Source of the DNA: Corynebacterium provencense
GTDB lineage: Bacteria; Actinomycetota; Actinomycetes; Mycobacteriales; Mycobacteriaceae
Assembly (NCBI GenBank): GCA_900049755.1
Contig: LT160593.1
Location: 1,274,334-1,338,333 of the forward strand
DNA length: 64,000 bases
Direction: 5' to 3'
The translations under genes and the position numbers were made by a program. The notes under the pieces were generated by a model. That model saw only the letters and a program-made list of their open reading frames with translations. It ran no database searches and had not been told where the DNA came from. Of the stretch, positions 58,455 to 59,535 are shown piece by piece (the stretch's first letter is position 1; each line of letters starts with the position of its first letter).

Positions 58455-59535
58455 CTACTTGCCGCCGTTGAAACCGATGTTGCCGTTGCCCGAGGGAGCG
58501 GCAGTGCTGCGGCTGTTGAGTTCCTCGAGCTGGGATTCGAGGAAGGTCTTCAGGCGGGTGCGGTACTCACGCTCGTAGGTGCGGAGTTCGTCGATCCGCG
58601 CCTCAAGGGTGGTCTGCTGCTTCTTGATCGTCGCCATGATCTCGGAGTGCTTGCGCTCGGCGTCCTGCTCCAGGGCGTTAGCCTTCTCCTGCGCTGCACG
58701 GACCTGGGCCTCGGACTGGGCGGTGGCGTCGGCGAGCATGGTGTCCGACTTCTGGCGGGCGTCGGCGACGAGGGTGTCCGCCTTCTGGCGGGCGTCGGCG
58801 ACAAGCTTCTCGGAGGTCTGCCTGGCCTCGGTCAGCTGGGTCTCGGCACGCTGCTTGGCGTCCGCGAGCTGGTTGCGGGAGGTGGTGTTCGCGGAGTCGA
58901 GTGTCTTCTTCGCCTCGGCGCGGGCCTCCTCCAGCATGGTCTGGGATTCCTGCCTGGCGTCCCCTGTGAGACGGTCGGCGGTCTCCTGTGCCAGCGCCAG
59001 AACGCGTGCGGCCTGCATGGAGTTCTCCGCTGCGGAGGAGCTGGTGCTCCCGGTCGAAGCCACCTGCTGGGGGGTGGAGGACGCCGGGGCGACGGTGGCC
59101 GCGGCCGCCTTCTTCTCTGCCTCTGCTGCGACGTGCTCCGCCTTGGTGGCGCGGTCCTCGGCGGTGCGGACGGCGATCTGGGCGTTCTTGAGCTCCTGCT
59201 CAAGTTCCTTCACCCGTGCCTCGGCACGGTTCTTCGCCTCTTCAGCGGCACGGGCGGCGGCGGTGGCCCGGTCGAGTGCGGCACCTAGACCTGTCTCTGA
59301 AACACACCTAGATGTGAAAAAGAGACAGGTCGACGGCAGGCGCGGCACCGGTGGCCGGGGCAGCTGCGCCGGACTCGAGCCTCGCCCGGAGCTCTTCCTT
59401 CTCGTCCTCAAGCTCAGCCAGCGTGTCCTCGACGAGATCGAGGAACTGGTCAACCTCGTCCTCGTTGTAGCCTCGCTTGCCGATCGGCGGCTTGCTGAAG
59501 GCCACGTTGTGAACGTCAGCGGGAGTCAACGGCAT
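58455..59535 (-). pseudogene. wag31: DivIVA/Wag31 gene, broken by adapter-like insert
   Basis: This is the polar growth scaffold of actinobacteria in two frames. The first (59535 to 59308) has the DivIVA head, MPLTPADVHNVAFSKPP and YNEDEVDQFLDLVEDTL. The second (to 58455) has the long coiled coil, starting AALDRATAAARAAEEAKNRA and rich in Ala, Lys, Glu and Gln with repeated ADARQK units. At 59291-59328 a sequence like two joined Tn5 mosaic ends causes a stop and frameshift. Deleting 19 bp restores one 353-residue protein, close to the normal length. Because the gene is essential in relatives, an assembly artefact is more likely than a real mutation. Confidence 0.88.
59291..59328. other. Mate-pair junction adapter-like 38-mer
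   Basis: The first half CTGTCTCTGAAACACACCT matches the Tn5 mosaic end at 16 of 19 positions, and the second half AGATGTGAAAAAGAGACAG matches its reverse complement at 17 of 19. Head-to-head mosaic ends are exactly what circularised tagmentation mate-pair libraries contain, and the mosaic end is a synthetic hybrid. It is AT-rich and unlike its coding surroundings. Confidence 0.8.

What the first reader, a model, noticed from the sequence alone, without database searches (positions are those of the whole stretch)
59291..59328. Mate-pair junction adapter sequence inside wag31
A 38-bp stretch matches two head-to-head Tn5 mosaic ends at 33 of 38 positions. It splits an essential cell-pole gene into two frames. 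The mosaic end is a man-made hybrid of the natural Tn5 ends, so the most economical explanation is residual library adapter or a chimeric join in the assembly. Removing 19 bp restores a normal 353-residue DivIVA.
Basis: partly seen in the sequence, partly recalled or inferred. Interest (0 to 1): 0.85.

Follow-up and report, generated by a model that had tools for sequence, protein, structure and literature searches.

The report
Sequencing adapter left in genome assembly
The odd 38 bases that break this cell-pole gene are a leftover laboratory DNA adapter from sequencing, one of dozens scattered through this genome assembly, so the break is almost certainly an assembly error and not biology.

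Summary
Window 59291-59328 matches the 38-base mate-pair junction adapter (two head-to-head Tn5 mosaic ends) at 33 of 38 positions and lies inside wag31/divIVA, whose two pieces are in different frames. It is not alone. The same assembly holds 105 matches to the 19-base mosaic end at up to 3 mismatches, none with 0 or 1, against 0 for the reversed control. Fifty-six places match the full 38-mer at up to 10 mismatches, and their consensus is exactly the adapter. Eight exact TruSeq adapter stems also sit in the assembly, one of them 6 bases from a junction. Adapter sites coincide with N in the assembly (14 of 63 stretches against 0 of 620 control chunks) and with locally duplicated flanks (13 of 63 against 23 of 620). 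Of 150 other genomes of the genus, 144 have no match at up to 2 mismatches, and the gene is unbroken in 18 of 18 same-genus relatives searched. This is residual library adapter from error-rich mate-pair reads. Ordinary artefact: low interest, useful as a warning.

The parts
59291..59328 (.). Error-bearing 38-base Nextera mate-pair junction adapter (two head-to-head Tn5 mosaic ends), 5 of 38 positions changed
59329..59535 (-). N-terminal piece of wag31/divIVA, 69 codons
   Evidence: PF05103 E 1.5e-9; 71-84% identical to the 11 same-genus DivIVA proteins recovered
58455..59288 (-). C-terminal piece of wag31/divIVA in another frame, 277 codons and stop
   Evidence: 41-63% identical to the 11 same-genus DivIVA proteins recovered
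59271..59285 (.). Left flank, imperfect gapped near-copy of the right flank 59329-59349; may be a faulty read end duplicated at the join
   Evidence: 658 of 20000 random adjacent 30-mer pairs score as high (3.3%), so only suggestive
30343..30361 (.). A second probable adapter remnant in the window, one mosaic-end half with 3 mismatches

Best explanation
The 38 bases are synthetic DNA. In Nextera mate-pair libraries, transposase tags fragments with junction adapters, the fragments are circularised, and reads through the circle junction carry genomic DNA, then the 38-base adapter, then distant genomic DNA. Reads in which the adapter was nearly perfect were removed by trimming. Low-quality reads with two or more errors per 19 bases escaped and were used at contig ends or in gap filling, leaving corrupted adapters and faulty flanking bases in the consensus. 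At wag31 this looks like a frame break with a stop. Shown: adapter identity, genome-wide recurrence, absence of near-perfect copies, TruSeq adapters alongside, association with N and with duplicated flanks. Inferred: the trimming and gap-filling steps, since the reads and assembly record of this strain were not available. The confidence given is for 'residual mate-pair adapter'; for the exact route I would give about 0.7.
For: 105 matches at <=3 mismatches, reversed control 0; 54 of them have exactly 2 mismatches, which equals the whole count at <=2, so none has 0-1. 56 38-mers (<=10 mismatches), 55 distinct, consensus identical to the adapter at 38 of 38 positions; reversed 38-mer 0 at <=16 mismatches in the same 63 stretches. 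108 of 112 half-sites are closest to the synthetic mosaic end alone; 1 is closest to the natural outside end and 3 are tied. TruSeq stem: 19 matches at <=3 mismatches, 8 of them exact, control 0; an exact one lies 6 bases from a junction (L158) and one with a mismatch starts one base after a junction (L170). N in 14 of 63 site stretches (4 of them a single N) against 0 of 620 control chunks; C or G runs of 7 or more 22 in 40,829 bases against 18 in 400,000. Exact direct repeats >=25 in 13 of 63 against 23 of 620; in 11 of the 13 a copy lies within 25 bases of an adapter half. 144 of 150 other genomes of the genus have no match at <=2 mismatches. The 38-mer is printed as a circularisation adapter in PMC7357533 (passage); the mosaic end is called a chimera of outside and inside ends in PMC3347997 (passages).
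Against: No raw reads were available. There is no N within 300 bases of the wag31 site and none in the window, and 49 of 63 site stretches have no N. The flank near-duplication at wag31 itself is weak (3.3% of random pairs). Direct repeats also occur in 23 of 620 control chunks.
Confidence: 0.99

Rival explanations
1. A real insertion in the strain's chromosome made by an engineered Tn5 with mosaic ends, for example a transposon mutant or a remnant.
For: The 19-mer is the mosaic end used in engineered transposons (passages).
Against: Two ends abut with no transposon body and no 9-base repeat on the two sides; dozens of sites with different errors and none near-perfect; TruSeq adapters beside some sites; sites associated with N.
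Confidence: 0.004
2. A natural dispersed palindromic repeat of this lineage that happens to resemble the mosaic end.
For: Many diverged copies scattered over the genome.
Against: The consensus equals the synthetic end exactly; 144 of 150 other genomes of the genus lack it at <=2 mismatches; 231 of 356 substitutions are transversions, where I would expect decay by mutation to favour transitions (recalled); TruSeq adapters are alongside.
Confidence: 0.003
3. Same adapter, but it entered through primary contig assembly of untrimmed mate-pair reads and not through gap filling or contig ends of trimmed data. This is a variant of the best explanation about the route, not a rival about what the 38 bases are.
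For: 49 of 63 site stretches have no N. For another genome whose assembly holds the adapter (strain AT8) the paper describes assemblies on both trimmed and untrimmed data (passages of PMC5552949).
Against: No copy with 0-1 mismatch among 105, as expected if near-perfect adapters had been removed first; enrichment of N and duplicated flanks.
Confidence: 0.3

Closest known systems
Nextera mate-pair (circularisation) junction adapter, two head-to-head Tn5 mosaic ends
   Same: 33 of 38 positions in the window; consensus of 56 copies identical at 38 of 38
   Different: Each of the 56 copies carries 4 or more mismatches over 38 bases, as expected for adapter sequence from poor read ends that escaped trimming
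Junction adapters left in other public assemblies
   Different: 73 of the 80 listed rows match on both strands, which with this pattern means a fully exact 38-mer; the window's genome holds only error-bearing copies
Natural Tn5/IS50 outside and inside ends
   Same: Related 19-base sequences
   Different: 108 of 112 half-sites are closest to the synthetic mosaic end alone; the inside-end letters were recalled, the outside end agrees with the oligo list seen

Membership tests
Residual mate-pair junction adapter | Sequence is the 38-base adapter | tested here: met
   33 of 38 at the window site; consensus of 56 sites 38 of 38
Residual mate-pair junction adapter | Recurs at unrelated places of the same assembly | tested here: met
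   105 half-site matches, control 0
Residual mate-pair junction adapter | Absent from the same locus in relatives | tested here: met
   The frame at the wag31 N-piece is open in 18 of 18 same-genus relatives, 294-414 aa; the same 18 genomes have no mosaic-end match at <=2 mismatches
Residual mate-pair junction adapter | Other library sequences present in the assembly | tested here: met
   TruSeq stem: 8 exact copies, 19 at <=3 mismatches, control 0; some of the 8 with 3 mismatches may be chance
Residual mate-pair junction adapter | Not in the strain's DNA | not testable with these tools
   No raw reads or strain
Genuine Tn5-type insertion | 9-base target duplication on the two sides | tested here: not met
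   The 9 bases on each side of 59291-59328 differ; the 9-base rule is recalled
Genuine Tn5-type insertion | Transposon body between the ends | tested here: not met
   The two ends abut with no spacer
DivIVA/Wag31 (host gene) | N-terminal DivIVA domain | tested here: met
   PF05103, E 1.5e-9, above the gathering score

The most novel reading that the evidence does not exclude
Error-bearing junction adapters are a hidden class of false gene breaks in reference genomes of the mate-pair era: trimming leaves only copies with two or more errors per 19 bases, so a screen for near-exact adapters finds nothing although dozens of insertions remain. In this genome a screen allowing at most 1 mismatch per mosaic end returns 0 while 56 junctions are present. 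G129 (15 of 16 matches with 2 mismatches), G095 (6 of 7) and G304 (10 of 10) show a similar pattern, whereas G358 has exact or one-mismatch copies in the 13 of 38 that are listed.
Probability: 0.6. Interest if true: 0.3.

Novelty: not a real feature. Interest (0 to 1): 0.12.

Why it matters
It removes a false claim that a polar-growth gene is broken in this strain. It also warns that this assembly holds dozens of similar artefacts, so frameshifts, apparent pseudogenes and small duplications in it should be checked before use. Screens that tolerate only 0-1 mismatches per mosaic end would miss all of the copies found here.

Tried and rejected
Genuine transposon insertion and natural repeat family: rejected on recurrence, consensus, TruSeq adapters and absence from 144 of 150 other genomes of the genus.

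Naming the organism: not achieved. The genome collection is unnamed, says that the window's own record may be left out of the named one, and two paper searches (seen as listings only) gave nothing that I could tie to it. That the genus is Corynebacterium is my recollection from gene order and genome sizes; only shows that the FtsZ resembles solved FtsZ chains.

The duplicated-flank test at wag31 alone was only suggestive (3.3% of random pairs). The alignment of the two gene pieces with relatives could not place the join exactly, because the site lies in a variable alanine-rich linker, and the aligner scattered the first residues of the C-piece. In one search my start-motif pattern recovered proteins from 16 of the 23 relatives' loci fetched (11 of 18 of the same genus); the other 7 were dropped. 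In one search, 30 of 31 genomes had a match; G162 (82% complete) had none. The BLAST comparison of site stretches (137 non-self matches among 63 stretches against 2 among 63 control pieces) is dominated by the adapter itself, so I used it only for the L131/L136 pair. The reversed mosaic-end control is not zero everywhere: 1 match in 151 genomes (G105) and 4 in 296 (G244 two, G374, G416). Paper searches were seen as listings; from 13, 16, 23 and 26 I opened passages of one, one, one and two papers, from 38 none.

Full report
What was claimed.

The observation. The sequence is there. It differs from the 38-base junction adapter at 5 positions, 3 in the first half and 2 in the second. The gene is a DivIVA: the N-terminal piece of 69 residues hits PF05103 at E 1.5e-9, the C-terminal piece at 2.6e-5, below the gathering score. 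Searched apart, both pieces match the DivIVA proteins of relatives (N-piece 71-84% and C-piece 41-63% identical to the 11 same-genus proteins recovered, of 18 loci fetched). In the own genome the open frame around the N-piece is 79 residues; for the best match in 18 same-genus relatives it is 294-414 residues with no stop. So the gene reads as broken in this assembly and is intact elsewhere. The two pieces are out of phase by 1 (mod 3), which is not what a clean 38-base insertion (2 mod 3) would give, so bases beside the adapter are probably faulty as well.

More than chance. In the whole assembly (3,084,178 bases, 22 contigs) the 19-base mosaic end matches 105 times at up to 3 mismatches; the pattern read backwards matches 0 times. 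Exactly 54 of the 100 listed matches have 2 mismatches, and the whole count at up to 2 mismatches is also 54, so no copy has 0 or 1. I fetched 63 stretches around the 100 listed places; the 5 unlisted ones were not sought out. In the 63 stretches, 56 places match the full 38-mer at up to 10 mismatches, 62 at up to 14; 55 of the 56 are distinct, and their consensus equals the adapter at all 38 positions. The reversed 38-mer gives 0 matches at up to 16 mismatches in the same stretches. Of 112 half-sites, 108 are closest to the synthetic mosaic end alone, 1 to the natural outside end, and 3 are tied. The stretches were chosen by half-site matches at up to 3 mismatches, which biases the mismatch counts downwards but cannot produce the absence of 0-1 mismatch copies.

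Other library sequence. The TruSeq adapter stem matches 19 times at up to 3 mismatches, 8 of them exact, control 0; some of the 8 with 3 mismatches may be chance. At L158 an exact stem lies 6 bases from a junction, at L170 a stem with one mismatch starts one base after a junction, and at L169 an exact stem lies about 100 bases from one. I know of no biological element that would carry these together.

Assembly context. Stretches around adapter sites hold N in 14 of 63 cases (4 of them a single N) against 0 of 620 chunks of 638 bases from 20 control stretches of 20 kb that I chose at round coordinates; the site stretches are 343 to 1186 bases long, mean 648. The control stretches contain no half-site at up to 3 mismatches. 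Runs of 7 or more C or G occur 22 times in 40,829 bases against 18 in 400,000. Exact direct repeats of 25 or more bases occur in 13 of 63 against 23 of 620, and in 11 of the 13 a copy lies within 25 bases of an adapter half (the edge condition was not applied to the controls). In L149, L160, L166, L175 and L186 one copy ends at the edge of a recognised adapter half (overlapping it by one base in L175) and the same bases recur 135 to 282 bases further on. One junction with about 415 bases around it occurs twice, in opposite orientation, 372 kb apart (L131 and L136). I read this as contig ends and filled gaps built from chimeric reads. The control stretches also hold six degenerate 38-mers at 9-11 mismatches, with 0 for the reversed 38-mer at up to 14, so the number of sites is probably higher than 56. 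At wag31 itself there is no N nearby, and the near-copy of the flank on the two sides is only suggestive (658 of 20,000 random adjacent pairs score as high).

Elsewhere. Of 151 genomes of the genus including the own one, 7 have any match at up to 2 mismatches: 54 matches in the own genome, 16 in G129, 7 in G095, 3 in G070, 2 in G113, 1 each in G031 and G045; the reversed control has 1 match. In a phylum sample including the own genome, 18 of 296 have a match, and several (for example G282, G315, G343) list exact copies at bases 1-19 of a contig, as ordinary Nextera adapters would leave; the reversed control has 4 matches. One of the listed organisms, strain AT8 (Hugonella massiliensis), has a paper whose passages describe a Nextera mate-pair library on MiSeq, assemblies of trimmed and untrimmed data, and GapCloser (PMC5552949); whether the window's genome came from a similar pipeline is not known. 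[quoted passage not shown] PMC7357533 prints the exact 38-mer as a circularisation adapter (passage). PMC3347997 describes the mosaic end as a chimera of the outside and inside ends (passages).

Conclusion. The feature is residual mate-pair junction adapter from error-rich reads. The route by which it entered (escape from trimming, then use at contig ends or in gap filling) is inferred. Raw reads would settle the last doubt.

Noticed in passing
window 30343-30361: A second mosaic-end remnant (3 mismatches) lies where a probable lipoprotein gene (judged by eye) on the minus strand changes frame (ORFs 30360-30677 and 29963-30580); probably another adapter artefact.
   Followed up: partly
G000 C1:234279-234916 (L131) and C1:606277-606914 (L136): The same error-bearing junction with about 415 bases around it occurs twice in opposite orientation, 372 kb apart.
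   Followed up: no
G000 C1:197198, C1:1187514, C2:224204, C2:563026, C2:1202347, C3:82641: Exact TruSeq adapter stems in the assembly away from the 100 listed mosaic-end matches.
   Followed up: no
L052 2821-3330 (NZ_NGMO01000002.1): Four junction adapters within 510 bases of a public Enterococcus genome.
   Followed up: no
L034 3552-3716 (CP051244.1): Two junction adapters with 89 bases between them in a record titled as a MAG chromosome.
   Followed up: no
   Followed up: no
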